Assembly (NCBI RefSeq): GCF_000721175.1
Contig: NZ_JOEZ01000016.1
Span: forward strand, 310,001-374,000
Direction: 5' to 3'
Source of the DNA: Streptomyces anulatus
GTDB taxonomy: Bacteria; Actinomycetota; Actinomycetes; Streptomycetales; Streptomycetaceae
Length of the DNA: 64,000 bases
Shown here piece by piece: positions 39,324 through 48,513 of this stretch. Each line of letters begins with the position of its first letter. Position 1 is the stretch's first letter. A model generated the notes under the pieces. It searched no databases. It had not been told where the DNA came from and saw nothing but the letters and a program-made list of their open reading frames with translations. Both the position numbers and the translations under genes were made by a program.

Positions 39324-39899
39324 GTGGGAGTCAGCCTCAGCAAGGGCGGCAACGTCTCGCTGACCAAGGCCGCGCCCAACCTGACCGCGGTCATCGTCGG
39401 TCTGGGCTGGGACGCCCGCACCACCACCGGGGGTGACTTCGACCTCGACGCCAGCGCTCTGCTGACGAACCCCGAGGGCAAGGTCGCCACCGACGGCAAT
39501 TTCGTCTTCTTCAACAACCTGAAGAGCCCCGACGGCTCCGTCGAGCACACCGGTGACAACACCACCGGTGAGGGCGAGGGCGACGACGAGGTCATCAAGG
39601 TGAACCTCGCCGGTGTCCCGGCCGACGTCGACAAGATCGTCTTCCCGGTCTCGATCTACGAGGCCGAGAGCCGTCAGCAGAGCTTCGGCCAGGTCCGCAA
39701 CGCGTACATCCGCGTGGTCAACCAGGCCGACAACACGGAGCTCGCCCGCTACGACCTGAGCGAGGACGCCTCGACGGAGACCGCCATGGTCTTCGGCGAG
39801 CTGTACCGCAACGGCGCCGAGTGGAAGTTCCGCGCCATCGGCCAGGGGTACGCCTCCGGCCTGCGCGGCATCGCCCAGGACTTCGGCGTCAACGTCTGA
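39324..39899 (+). CDS. terD: TerD family calcium-binding stress protein, copy 1
   Basis: 191 residues. 'GVSLSKGGNVSLTKAAPNLT' starts the domain; acidic calcium ligands lie in 'GWDARTTTGGDFDLDASALL' and 'HTGDNTTGEGEGDDEVIKVN'; 'SEDASTETAMVFGELYR' and 'GYASGLRGIAQDFGVNV' end it. TerD proteins bind Ca2+ at the membrane with TerC; in Streptomyces they affect development and stress tolerance. GTG start with GGAGG 4-5 nt upstream. First of three TerD-domain genes in the locus. Confidence 0.95.
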   Translation: MGVSLSKGGNVSLTKAAPNLTAVIVGLGWDARTTTGGDFDLDASALLTNPEGKVATDGNFVFFNNLKSPDGSVEHTGDNTTGEGEGDDEVIKVNLAGVPADVDKIVFPVSIYEAESRQQSFGQVRNAYIRVVNQADNTELARYDLSEDASTETAMVFGELYRNGAEWKFRAIGQGYASGLRGIAQDFGVNV

Positions 39900-39945
39900 C
39901 GTTCTGGGCCCAGGGGGTGTCCGGCACTGATCCGCCGGCACCCCT

Positions 39946-45166: not shown

Positions 45167-47689
45167 ATGAGCGAGCGCGTGACGAGAGAAGAGACCGTGG
45201 ACGTGGTGTGGTCGGGCAACTGGGTGGCGAAGCGGCTGGGAGTCGCCCTCGAAGGCGACGGAGAGCTCCAGGAACTGCTGGGCCTGGCCCTGCGCCGCAA
45301 CCCCAAGAGGGCGCATCTACTGGTGTCCAACGTGCTGGGCAAGCACGTGCCGCAGCTGCCCTCCGTCGTCCATGGCGCCGGGTTCGAGCTGGGTGAGCGG
45401 GTACGGGCGCTGCTCGGCGCTCAGGAGGCCCGCCGCGCGGTGGTCCTCGGATACGCGGAGACGGCCACCGGTCTCGGCCACGCCGTCGCGGACGGCCTGA
45501 GGGACGCCCCGTACCTCCACTCCACCCGGCGTCCGGTGGCGGGCGTCGAGCAGGCGGGCGGCTTCGAGGAGTCCCACTCGCACGCCACCTCGCACCTGCT
45601 GCTGCCGGAGGACGGTGAGCTGCTGGCGGGGGGCGCGCAGGCGTCCACCCTGGTGCTGGTCGACGACGAGTTCTCCACCGGCAACACGGTCCTCAACACC
45701 ATCCGCGCGCTGCACGCACTGCACCCGCGCGAGCGGTACGTCATCGTCGCCCTGGTCGACATGCGCTCCGCCGGCGACCGCGACCGGCTGACCGCCTTCG
45801 CCGCCGAGATCGGCGCCCGCGTCGACCTGGTGACGCGCAGTACCGGGACGGTCGCCCTGCCGGACGGCGTACTGGAACGCGGCCAGGCCCTGGTCGCGGC
45901 CCAGGAGGCGGAGCAGGCGGAAGAGGCGGAGCAGGCGGCTGCTTCCGCTTCCGCCCCTGTCACCCGGGTCGACCTCGACTGGCCCGCAGGCGTCCCCGAC
46001 GGCGGCCGGCACGGCTTCACCCCCGCCCACCGGGCAGCCCTCGAAGCGGCGCTGCCGGCCATGGCGGACCGGATCGCGGCCGCGCTGGGCGGCGGAGCGG
46101 CGGCGGACGGGGGCCAGGCCCCCCGCCGGATCCTCGTCCTCGGCTTCGAGGAGCTGATGTACGCCCCGCTGCGCCTGGGCACCGCCCTCGAAGTGGCCCT
46201 CGGAGCCGACACCGAGGTCCGCTACTCCACCACCACCCGCTCGCCCGTCCTGGCCGTCGACGACCCCGGCTACGCGATACGCACCCGCCTCGTCTTCCCG
46301 GCCCACGACGACCCGGCGGACGGCCCCGGCGACCGGTACGCGTACAACGTGGCGGGCGCCGGCTTCGACGCCGTGGTCGCCGTCGTCGACTCCACCGCCG
46401 ACACCCCCGAACTGCACGCCCCCGACGGACTGCTGGCCCGGCTCGCCGAGCACACCGGCCACGTCCTCCTCGCGGTGGTCCCGTCCTACGTCCCGGCCAC
46501 ATCCGCATCCGAACGGCAGGAGCCCGCCGTGCTGCCCGAGCCCCTCCGAGGCCCCGACTTCTCCAGTTACGCGCCGGAGGACGTCGGCTGGCTGCTCCAG
46601 GACCTCTCGGACACCGAGCTGGAAGCACCCACCGAGGAGCGCGAGGAGGCCATCCAGAGCGGCGGCGCGCACTACGCGGAGTCGCTGCCCGTCGAGTACC
46701 AGCCGAGCGCCGCGTACCAGGCCCTGTTCACCGCCGCCCTGGAAACCTCCGCCGCGCGCATCGCCCGCGCGGTGGGCACCGTCACCGAGACGGTCCTCGC
46801 CGAACGCGGCCCGCGCCCCGTGCTCGTCTCGCTCGCCCGCGCCGGAACCCCGGTCGGGGTGCTGATGCGCCGCTGGGCCCAGCACCGGCACGGTCTGGAC
46901 CTGCCGCACTACGCCATCTCCATCGTCCGGGGCCGGGGCATCGACGCCACCGCCCTGCGCTGGCTGGCCGCCCATCACGACCCGGCCGACGTGGTGTTCG
47001 TCGACGGCTGGACCGGGAAGGGTGCGATCACCCGCGAACTGGCGGCGGCCATAAGCGAGTTCGAGGCGTCGGGCGGGCCCGCCGGTTTCGACCCGGAGAT
47101 CGCGGTGCTCGCCGACCCCGGCGGCTGCGTACGGACATACGGCACCCGCGAGGACTTCCTCATCCCCTCGGCCTGCCTCAACTCCACGGTCTCCGGCCTC
47201 ATCTCCCGTACGGTGCTCCGCGCCGACCTGGTCGGCCCCGACGACTTCCACGGCGGGAAGTTCTACCGGGAACTGGCGGACTCCGACGTGTCGGGCGACT
47301 TCCTCGCCGCGGTGACCGCCCGCTTCGCCGAGGTGGCGGAACAGGTCGAGGCCGAGGCCAAGGAACTGCTCGCCGCCGACCGCGCCCCGACGTGGGAGGG
47401 CTGGGCGGCCGTCGAGCGGATCAGCGAGGAGTACGGCATCCACGACGTCAACCTGGTCAAGCCGGGCGTCGGCGAGACCACCCGGGTCCTGCTCCGCCGG
47501 GTCCCCTGGAAGATCCTCGCGAAGCGCGGCGCGGGCGCGGACCTGGAGCACATCCGGCTGCTGGCCGAACAGCGCGGCGTCCCGGTTGAGGAGGTCGACG
47601 ACCTCCCGTACAGCTGTGTCGGACTGATCCACCCCCGGTTCACGCGCGGCGCGACGGGCGCGGACGGCAAGGCGGTGCAGGGCGCATGA
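45167..47689 (+). CDS. Phosphoribosyltransferase-TRSP-StiP fusion protein of the Ter module
   Basis: 840 residues. N-terminal PRTase_2 domain (about 40-240) with PRPP motif 'LVLVDDEFSTGNTVLNT' (162-178); a Glu/Ala linker near 245-262; TRSP domain (about 265-460) with 'LGFEELMYAPLRLGTALEVA' and 'GPGDRYAYNVAGAGFDAVVA'; then a StiP/PELPP-like phosphoribosyl-binding region (about 520-830) with 'LVSLARAGTPVGVLMRRW', 'ISIVRGRGIDATALRWL' and 'VVFVDGWTGKGAITREL'. These three parts are separate genes in many bacteria. ATG at 45167 has no Shine-Dalgarno; GTG at 45197 is an alternative. Its stop overlaps the HAD gene start by 4 bp. Confidence 0.87.
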   Translation: MSERVTREETVDVVWSGNWVAKRLGVALEGDGELQELLGLALRRNPKRAHLLVSNVLGKHVPQLPSVVHGAGFELGERVRALLGAQEARRAVVLGYAETATGLGHAVADGLRDAPYLHSTRRPVAGVEQAGGFEESHSHATSHLLLPEDGELLAGGAQASTLVLVDDEFSTGNTVLNTIRALHALHPRERYVIVALVDMRSAGDRDRLTAFAAEIGARVDLVTRSTGTVALPDGVLERGQALVAAQEAEQAEEAEQAAASASAPVTRVDLDWPAGVPDGGRHGFTPAHRAALEAALPAMADRIAAALGGGAAADGGQAPRRILVLGFEELMYAPLRLGTALEVALGADTEVRYSTTTRSPVLAVDDPGYAIRTRLVFPAHDDPADGPGDRYAYNVAGAGFDAVVAVVDSTADTPELHAPDGLLARLAEHTGHVLLAVVPSYVPATSASERQEPAVLPEPLRGPDFSSYAPEDVGWLLQDLSDTELEAPTEEREEAIQSGGAHYAESLPVEYQPSAAYQALFTAALETSAARIARAVGTVTETVLAERGPRPVLVSLARAGTPVGVLMRRWAQHRHGLDLPHYAISIVRGRGIDATALRWLAAHHDPADVVFVDGWTGKGAITRELAAAISEFEASGGPAGFDPEIAVLADPGGCVRTYGTREDFLIPSACLNSTVSGLISRTVLRADLVGPDDFHGGKFYRELADSDVSGDFLAAVTARFAEVAEQVEAEAKELLAADRAPTWEGWAAVERISEEYGIHDVNLVKPGVGETTRVLLRRVPWKILAKRGAGADLEHIRLLAEQRGVPVEEVDDLPYSCVGLIHPRFTRGATGADGKAVQGA

Positions 47690-48513
47690 GCGTGACTTCG
47701 CCTTCCTCGGTCACGCTGGTGGCGAGCGACCTCGACCGTACGCTCATCTACTCGGCGGCCTCGCTGGAGTTGTCGATGCCGGACGCGGAAGCCCCCCGGC
47801 TCCTGTGCGTGGAGGTGTACGGCCACAAGCCCCTCTCGTACATGACGGAGAGGGGAGCCGCCCTCCTCACCGACCTGGCCGGCTCCACGGTCTTCGTGCC
47901 GACCACCACCCGCACCCGCGAGCAGTACCAGCGCATCCACCTCCCCGGCCCCGTCCCCCGGTACGCGATCTGCGCCAACGGCGGTCACATCCTGGTCGAC
48001 GGCGTCTCCGACCACGACTGGCGGAAGCGGGTGGAAGCCCGGATCGCCGCCGAGTGCGCCCCGCTCACCGAGATCCGCGCCCATCTCGCCACCACCGCCG
48101 ACCCGGCCTGGCTGCTCAAGGAACGGGTCGCCGAGGACCTCTTCGCCTACCTCGTCGTCGAACGCTCCCTGCTGCCCGAGGAGTGGGTGAAGGAACTGGC
48201 CGCCTGGGCCCGGCCGCGCGGCTGGACCGTCTCGCTCCAGGGCCGCAAGATCTACGCGGTCCCGGCGCCGCTCACCAAGAGCGCCGCCATGCACGAGGTC
48301 GCCCGCCGCACCGGCGCCACGCGCACCCTCGCCGCCGGGGACTCCCTCCTCGACGCCGACCTGCTGCTCGCCGCCGACCTCGGCTGGCGCCCCGGCCACG
48401 GCGAACTGGCCGACGATGGCTGGAGGGCTCCGCACGTGACGGCGCTGGAGGAGCGGGGCGGAGCGGCGGGGGAGGAGATCCTGCGGCGTTTCCTGGCGGC
48501 TTCCGCTGCGTGA
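47686..48513 (+). CDS. HAD-superfamily phosphatase of the Ter module
   Basis: 275 residues, Cof/C2-cap type. Motif I 'VASDLDRTLIYSAASLELSM' (Asp nucleophile near residue 15), motif II Thr in 'VFVPTTTRTREQYQRIHLP', motif III Lys in 'APLTKSAAMHEV', motif IV 'LAAGDSLLDADLLLAADLGW'. Probably removes a phosphate from the operon's phosphoribosyl product. ATG overlaps the previous stop (ATGA). The protein lengths and order lyase-PRTase-HAD match Ter loci elsewhere. Confidence 0.88.
   Translation: MSVTSPSSVTLVASDLDRTLIYSAASLELSMPDAEAPRLLCVEVYGHKPLSYMTERGAALLTDLAGSTVFVPTTTRTREQYQRIHLPGPVPRYAICANGGHILVDGVSDHDWRKRVEARIAAECAPLTEIRAHLATTADPAWLLKERVAEDLFAYLVVERSLLPEEWVKELAAWARPRGWTVSLQGRKIYAVPAPLTKSAAMHEVARRTGATRTLAAGDSLLDADLLLAADLGWRPGHGELADDGWRAPHVTALEERGGAAGEEILRRFLAASAA

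What the first reader, a model, noticed from the sequence alone, without database searches (positions are those of the whole stretch)
39324..48513. Ter stress locus with a complete-looking metabolite-synthesis operon
Three TerD-domain proteins, a DUF475/TerC membrane protein, a TerA-like protein, then CitE/HpcH lyase, a fused PRTase-TRSP-StiP protein and a HAD phosphatase form one compact locus. Comparative genomics by Anantharaman and co-workers proposed that such modules make a nucleoside-like compound, but chemistry and product are, to my knowledge, unproven. PRPP-binding, C-C lyase and phosphatase motifs are all intact here. No ATP-grasp gene is present in the window, although related modules often have one, so the pathway may be shorter or completed elsewhere.
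Basis: partly seen in the sequence, partly recalled or inferred. Interest (0 to 1): 0.8.

Follow-up and report, generated by a model that had tools for sequence, protein, structure and literature searches.

The report
Streptomyces Ter module without ATP-grasp
This is the Streptomyces version of a known but biochemically unsolved bacterial stress-response gene set, predicted to build a ribose-containing signal or modification from the sugar donor PRPP, and comparison across genomes suggests that the step that seemed to be missing here is optional.

Summary
The locus is real and belongs to the predicted Ter stress-response system. Corrections: the 840-aa protein has four domains (PRTase_2-TRSP-StiP-PELOTA), and a divergent terD splits the locus, so it is not one operon. 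The open question, the absent ATP-grasp, is largely answered. No Ter-type ATP-grasp was found in this genome or in 11 other actinobacterial loci. In the genus, PRTase_2 occurs in 146 of 150 genomes and a strong ATPgrasp_Ter in 63, at least 0.4 Mb away in the 25 measurable cases. Of 63 full-length proteobacterial loci, 63 have PRTase_2, HAD, StiP and lyase, 51 ATP-grasp; 0 of 13 genomes without a linked copy have one elsewhere, 3 of 3 controls ring. It looks accessory. StiP is not supported as a cysteine protease (no conserved Cys in 39 sequences); its predicted fold is phosphoribosyltransferase-like plus L7Ae-like, best matching a capsule enzyme domain that transfers ribose-5-phosphate from PRPP to a hydroxyl and works with a HAD phosphatase. 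Likely chemistry: two PRPP-dependent transfers, a lyase step, dephosphorylation. The product is unproven.

The parts
39324..39899 (+). TerD-domain protein 1 (191 aa)
   Evidence: PF02342 7.2e-86; closest solved relative 3ibz 'putative tellurium resistant like protein TerD', E 6.1e-108
40022..40597 (+). TerD-domain protein 2 (start refined; the open frame begins at 39821)
   Evidence: PF02342 2.8e-82; GGAGGA before ATG 40022
40667..41818 (+). DUF475/TerC-family membrane protein
   Evidence: PF04332 2.2e-136, PF03741 1.1e-20
41949..42683 (+). TerA C-terminal-half-like protein (244 aa), no Pfam match
   Evidence: 34% over 220 aa to P. putida TerA residues 196-393; start refined
42821..43717 (-). 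TerD-domain protein 3 with a proline-rich tail, opposite in strand to the other seven genes
   Evidence: PF02342 4.8e-43; start 43717 or 43708; same place and orientation in 7 of 7 other same-genus loci fetched
43930..45156 (+). CitE/HpcH-type C-C bond lyase (408 aa)
   Evidence: PF15617 5e-123; start refined; invariant residues shared with P. putida and Citrobacter lyases
45167..47689 (+). Four-domain fusion PRTase_2-TRSP-StiP-PELOTA (840 aa)
   Evidence: one open frame; each half matches a separate gene in P. putida and Citrobacter
45275..45847 (+). PRTase_2 domain (fusion residues 37-227)
45650..45688 (+). PRPP-binding loop LVLVDDEFSTGNT of PRTase_2
   Evidence: D166, D167, E168, G172 and T174 invariant in 30 of 30 sequences
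45998..46435 (+). TRSP domain
   Evidence: PF12500 131.5 bits; fold not settled here
46562..47314 (+). StiP domain (PF11202), a second PRTase-like domain
   Evidence: 353 bits; predicted PRTase-like fold over model residues 63-258; no conserved Cys in 39 sequences
46994..47029 (+). PRPP-loop-like motif VFVDGWTGKGAI with one acidic residue instead of two
   Evidence: D159 to I167 (DGWTGKGAI, model numbering) invariant in 39 of 39 sequences; a more distant StiP keeps DGWT but not GKGAI
47393..47632 (+). PELOTA/L7Ae-like domain
   Evidence: PF15608 122 bits; L7Ae/L30e fold matches; profile aligns to L7Ae ANEVTK as iaeatR
47686..48513 (+). HAD phosphatase, 4-base ATGA overlap with the fusion gene
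   Evidence: D15, D17, T19, T74, K198, G218, D219, D223 invariant in 5 of 5; 6cj0/6d3v at E 4.8e-10; overlap seen

Best explanation
The locus is the actinobacterial, ATP-grasp-less form of the Ter biosynthetic module. Four activities form its core: a C-C bond lyase, two PRPP-type transferase domains fused in one chain (canonical PRTase_2-TRSP and non-canonical StiP-PELOTA) and a HAD phosphatase. Most likely the lyase makes or trims the small acceptor, PRTase_2 and StiP each transfer ribose-5-phosphate from PRPP, and the HAD removes the 5'-phosphate; the ribosylated product is sensed by the TerD/TerA/DUF475 proteins encoded beside it. ATP-grasp, where present, would be an optional tailoring ligase. 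Shown here: domains, motifs, gene order, how often ATP-grasp is absent. Predicted: folds. Inferred: substrates, order of steps, product, sensing.
For: Domains and families. Same eight genes and order in 8 of 8 same-genus loci compared, window included. PRTase_2 in 146 of 150 genomes of the genus; the 4 misses are assemblies of 550-1770 contigs. In a phylum sample of 246 genomes, strong PRTase_2 (>200 bits) and strong lyase (>400 bits) occur in the same 10 and no others. In 63 proteobacterial loci of 20 kb or more, PRTase_2, HAD, StiP and lyase are in 63 and ATP-grasp in 51. No PF15632 match at E <= 1e-10 in 13 of 13 genomes whose locus lacks it; 3 of 3 controls ring. StiP: PRTase-like plus L7Ae-like fold, no conserved Cys. 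PRTase_2: APRT-like. A Ter-module HAD has been solved as a phosphatase.
Confidence: 0.6

Rival explanations
1. The original proposal as later papers summarise it: the module makes a nucleoside-like small molecule, and an ATP-grasp ligase is a required step supplied from elsewhere in this genome.
For: ATP-grasp is in the locus in 51 of 63 full-length proteobacterial loci; 63 of 150 genomes of the genus have a strong ATPgrasp_Ter. PMC7824862 and PMC5512222 (passages) describe nucleoside/nucleotide-derivative synthesis involving the Ter PRTases. PMC12054061 (passage) even words nucleoside-like metabolite synthesis as shown, citing the 2012 comparative-genomics paper.
Against: In this genome the P. 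putida Ter ATP-grasp has no match at E <= 1, and the best PF15632 match, 34.6 bits, is a protein that scores better as ATP-grasp_4 with an L-amino acid ligase C-terminal domain. 87 of 150 genomes of the genus have no match at E <= 1e-20. 0 of 13 genomes with an ATP-grasp-less proteobacterial locus supply it elsewhere. The 5 unlinked copies inspected have no Ter neighbours in 16 kb.
Confidence: 0.15
2. StiP-PELOTA modifies RNA: it docks on RNA through the L7Ae-like domain and transfers ribose-5-phosphate from PRPP to an RNA hydroxyl, and the HAD removes the 5'-phosphate.
Confidence: 0.12
3. StiP is a cysteine protease, as the Pfam description and record annotations say, and the locus processes a protein.
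For: The database names only.
Against: No alignment column has Cys in more than 24 of 39 sequences and no Cys is invariant. The predicted fold matches PRTases and L7Ae. An invariant DGWTGKGAI loop resembles a PRPP loop. [quoted passage not shown]
Confidence: 0.02
4. The HAD is a true trehalose-6-phosphate phosphatase and the locus feeds osmoprotection.
For: The P. putida Ter HAD is nearly identical to 6d3v/6cj0, named trehalose phosphatase; a P. aeruginosa extrachromosomal enzyme was assayed among TPPs (PMC6838324, passages).
Against: In the P. putida plasmid the gene sits between PRTase_2 and StiP, and no trehalose-phosphate synthase is annotated in the 25-kb stretch. A homologue is present in 80 of 80 StiP loci. 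The window HAD is only 27% identical to the P. putida one. HAD phosphatases are often promiscuous (general knowledge).
Confidence: 0.06

Closest known systems
Ter biosynthetic module of proteobacterial plasmids and chromosomes (P. putida pTTS12, IncHI2 plasmid of Citrobacter portucalensis)
   Same: PRTase_2-TRSP, HAD, StiP-PELOTA, C-C lyase and TerD/TerC/TerA neighbours, homologous gene by gene
   Different: There four separate genes plus an ATP-grasp; here the two PRTase-type domains, TRSP and PELOTA are one polypeptide, no ATP-grasp is present, the membrane gene is DUF475-type, none of the eight genes matches P. putida TerB, and TerA is only the C-terminal half
CriT-CrpP pair of the Haemophilus influenzae b capsule enzyme Bcs3 (taken to be 8a0c/8a0m)
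   Same: PRPP-dependent ribosyltransferase of PRTase-like fold acting with a HAD phosphatase; one acid at the DD position; best fold match of StiP (PMC10299916 passages)
   Different: Makes a capsule polymer; 7% identity over the aligned part; PELOTA, lyase and Ter genes are not mentioned in the passages seen
Type I PRTases (APRT, PyrR)
   Different: Not fused to TRSP or PELOTA (recalled); StiP lacks the second acid
Solved 'trehalose phosphatase' 6cj0/6d3v
   Same: Member of the Ter-module HAD family: nearly identical to the P. putida Ter HAD
   Different: The window enzyme is a distant relative (27% to the P. putida HAD)

Membership tests
Ter stress-response system (predicted) | TerD-domain proteins with a TerC-type membrane protein | tested here: met
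   PF02342 x3, PF04332 and PF03741
Ter stress-response system (predicted) | Biosynthetic module with PRTase_2-TRSP, StiP-PELOTA, C-C lyase and HAD | tested here: met
   the HAD matches the HAD between PRTase_2 and StiP in P. putida (E 4.7e-14)
Ter stress-response system (predicted) | ATP-grasp of PF15632 in the module (a frequent accessory; searches show that it does not define the module) | tested here: not met
   No Ter-type match in window or genome; none in 11 of 11 other actinobacterial loci at E <= 1e-5
Ter stress-response system (predicted) | Synthesis of a nucleoside-like metabolite | not testable with these tools
   Needs metabolomics and enzymology
PRTase superfamily (PRTase_2 domain) | PRTase fold and DD(E)..TG.T loop | tested here: met
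   (fold from a predicted model)
PRTase superfamily (StiP domain) | PRTase fold | tested here: met
PRTase superfamily (StiP domain) | Two vicinal acids in the PRPP loop (canonical members) | tested here: not met
   VDGWTGKGAI: D159 in 39 of 39, next residue Gly in 39 of 39; hence 'PRTase-like'
Cysteine protease | Invariant catalytic cysteine | tested here: not met
   None in 39 sequences
L7Ae/PELOTA domains | L7Ae-type fold | tested here: met
L7Ae/PELOTA domains | RNA binding | not testable with these tools
   E, T and R/K of the signature kept, Asn not
HAD phosphatases | Catalytic motifs DxDxT, T/S, K, GDxxxD | tested here: met
   Invariant in 5 of 5
CitE/HpcH C-C lyases | Homology to the Ter lyase family and to CitE | tested here: met
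   PF15617 411 bits; weak matches to acyl-CoA, malyl-CoA and citrate lyases; activity not tested

The most novel reading that the evidence does not exclude
The Ter product is not a free nucleoside but an O-linked ribofuranoside, possibly on RNA: StiP-PELOTA would be a PRPP-dependent O-ribosyltransferase guided by an L7Ae-type RNA-binding domain, and the HAD would strip the 5'-phosphate, giving a ribosylated RNA mark or signal nearly universal in Streptomyces.
Probability: 0.12. Interest if true: 0.85.

Novelty: new variant of a known kind. Interest (0 to 1): 0.5.

Why it matters
What the Ter biosynthetic module makes is an open question; a 2021 study calls the cluster putative and its link to the TerC complex unclear (PMC8115787, passages). 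The actinobacterial form reduces it to three genes, with PRTase_2 present in 146 of 150 genomes of the genus, so it can be tested in non-pathogenic laboratory strains without first finding an ATP-grasp partner. Reading StiP as a second, non-canonical PRTase with an RNA-binding-type domain, and the HAD as kin of an assayed sugar-phosphate phosphatase, gives concrete assays in place of a misleading 'cysteine protease' label.

Tried and rejected
Rejected: StiP as cysteine protease; a Ter ATP-grasp hidden in this genome. Little yield: PADLOC matched 0 of 8 proteins; PHROGs matched 3 of 7 proteins given, two TerD proteins and the DUF475 protein, the second TerD not being given; PDB by sequence gave nothing for the fusion at E <= 1; the lyase matched 1 of 50,697 phage records. 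Whole-genome PF15632 is unspecific at low scores (12 of 14 control genomes over the cut-off), so later counts used strict E-values. The first gene calling of fetched loci mis-called some lyase, HAD and terD genes because of wrong-frame ORFs; the gene-order statement rests on the tblastn re-check. The TRSP fold was not settled, because rows of the PRTase_2 domain filled the list. The Bcs3 resemblance could not be tested by sequence profile because no sequence of that family was at hand; no protease was among the 50 rows shown, which by the tool's own note excludes nothing. Literature: Anantharaman 2012 is not held, so whether the actinobacterial fusion is already described there is unknown.
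Full report
Observation. Pfam finds three TerD domains, a DUF475/TerC protein, the Ter C-C bond lyase and an 840-aa protein with PRTase_2, TRSP, StiP and PELOTA_1. The TerA-like gene has no Pfam match but aligns with the C-terminal half of P. putida TerA (34% over 220 aa), and the HAD aligns with the HAD that lies between PRTase_2 and StiP in P. putida (27%, E 4.7e-14). The fusion and HAD genes overlap by ATGA, and the lyase ends 10 bases before the fusion. The third terD is on the opposite strand, so the locus is not one operon.

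Reference module. On the P. putida plasmid pTTS12 the order is ATP-grasp, a protein annotated as trypsin-like, PRTase_2-TRSP, HAD, StiP-PELOTA, lyase, a second HAD, and terD, terB and terC genes. An IncHI2 plasmid of Citrobacter has ATP-grasp, PRTase_2, HAD, StiP and lyase in a row. Both ATP-grasps are PF15632 members at 138 and 129 bits. The lyase has a relative in 2,514 of 72,556 plasmid records.

Is an ATP-grasp missing or not needed? In this genome the P. putida ATP-grasp has no match at E <= 1. PF15632 has five matches, the best 34.6 bits, in a protein that scores better as ATP-grasp_4 with an L-amino acid ligase domain. In a sample of 246 genomes of the phylum, PRTase_2 above 200 bits occurs in 10 (8 of 8 of the genus and 2 of another family, all in open frames of 846 aa or more); one further genome, G130, is over the cut-off at 65 bits with a separate 418-aa frame; 60 genomes have some match at E <= 0.001, mostly weak. 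The lyase above 400 bits occurs in the same 10; 25 others have 35-50-bit, CitE-like matches. The Fisher value for 10 of 10 against 0 of 236 is 5e-18 but ignores kinship. PF15632 at E <= 1e-8 is found in 37 of the 246; among the 8 of the genus it is 118-128 bits in 5, far from the locus or on another contig and without Ter neighbours in 16 kb. Neighbours examined include helix-turn-helix and metallophosphatase genes.

Genus scale. Among 150 genomes PRTase_2 is found in 146 at E <= 1e-20, two of them partial; the four misses have 550-1770 contigs. ATPgrasp_Ter at E <= 1e-20 is found in 63. In the 25 genomes that carry both on one contig the distance is 0.41 Mb at least and 5.0 Mb at the median; in the others the two lie on different contigs, or PRTase_2 was not found, and no distance can be given.

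Gene order. By tblastn, 7 of 7 other loci of the genus carry all eight genes in the window's order; two other same-class genomes and Nocardia farcinica carry TerD, DUF475, lyase, fusion and HAD. No ATP-grasp query (P. putida, Citrobacter or Streptomyces) hits any of the 11 loci examined, of 14 to 21 kb, which include G130 with a reduced set (the single frame of the fusion in N. farcinica is inferred from in-frame hits). With the window itself, 8 of 8 of the genus agree.

Outside the phylum. PRTase_2, HAD and StiP are in 80 of 80, lyase in 79, ATP-grasp in 58. In the 63 loci of at least 20 kb the first four are in 63 and ATP-grasp in 51. By ORF ends, PRTase_2 and StiP are fused in 0 of 80. Of the 22 loci without a linked ATP-grasp I checked 13 genome-wide (the 12 full-length ones and Mesorhizobium): 0 of 13 have a PF15632 match at E <= 1e-10, while 3 of 3 genomes with a linked ATP-grasp ring. 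ATP-grasp therefore looks like an accessory of a four-activity core, and in the actinobacterial loci seen it is not part of the locus.

PELOTA and HAD. PELOTA is listed with StiP in all 240 proteins shown (the best 120 of 6348 and of 7957; those with names are Streptomyces). In the profile alignment to L7Ae, E, T and R/K of the ANEVTK signature are kept and N is not. The P. putida Ter HAD is nearly identical to 6d3v/6cj0, deposited as trehalose phosphatase. PMC6838324 (passages) reports phosphatase assays of the P. aeruginosa 'extrachromosomal TPP'; that this is the same protein is inferred from the name and recalled literature. Its genomic place suggests a different native substrate.

Function in cells. 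In Klebsiella work, terZ-F alone gave tellurite resistance to E. coli, and the biosynthetic cluster is called putative, with an unclear link to TerC (PMC8115787, passages). The module is therefore not simply a tellurite-resistance device. PMC7824862 (passages) summarises the Ter system as signal synthesis plus sensing plus membrane response. PMC12054061 (passage) words nucleoside-like metabolite synthesis as shown, but cites the 2012 comparative-genomics paper for it.

Verdict. The chemistry is still inference, and the best new lead is O-ribosylation. Novelty is marked 'new variant' with the caveat that the 2012 paper could not be read.

Noticed in passing
window 48540-48885: 5'-truncated O-methyltransferase remnant (PF01596, profile positions 119-167 of 204) just after the HAD; genome G107 has an intact 242-aa O-methyltransferase at that place (L067:3788-4516), and one nearby downstream gene tested in each of three other loci of the genus is unrelated.
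   Followed up: partly
L059-L063: The unlinked ATPgrasp_Ter genes of five genomes of the genus share parts of a neighbourhood with helix-turn-helix regulators, a metallophosphatase and a CBM/fn3 protein, and no Ter genes were seen there.
   Followed up: partly
L073:5859-6902 (G130): An actinobacterium outside the window's class has a StiP-PELOTA-like gene and a separate PRTase_2 frame beside terD/terA-like genes, without a strong ATP-grasp or lyase match.
   Followed up: partly
window 43930-45156: The three actinobacterial lyases aligned carry an insert of about 30 residues (around residues 333-364) and an N-terminal extension that the P. putida and Citrobacter lyases lack.
   Followed up: no
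H41, MT836648.1 6266-7216: A 15-kb record labelled Bacteriophage sp. from human faeces holds a Ter-type lyase homologue (28.8% identity); the record has no annotation.
   Followed up: no
window 51951-52024: tRNA-Val (tac) is the only tRNA and the only Rfam match at gathering score in the window, so no curated riboswitch was found before the DUF475 gene.
   Followed up: no
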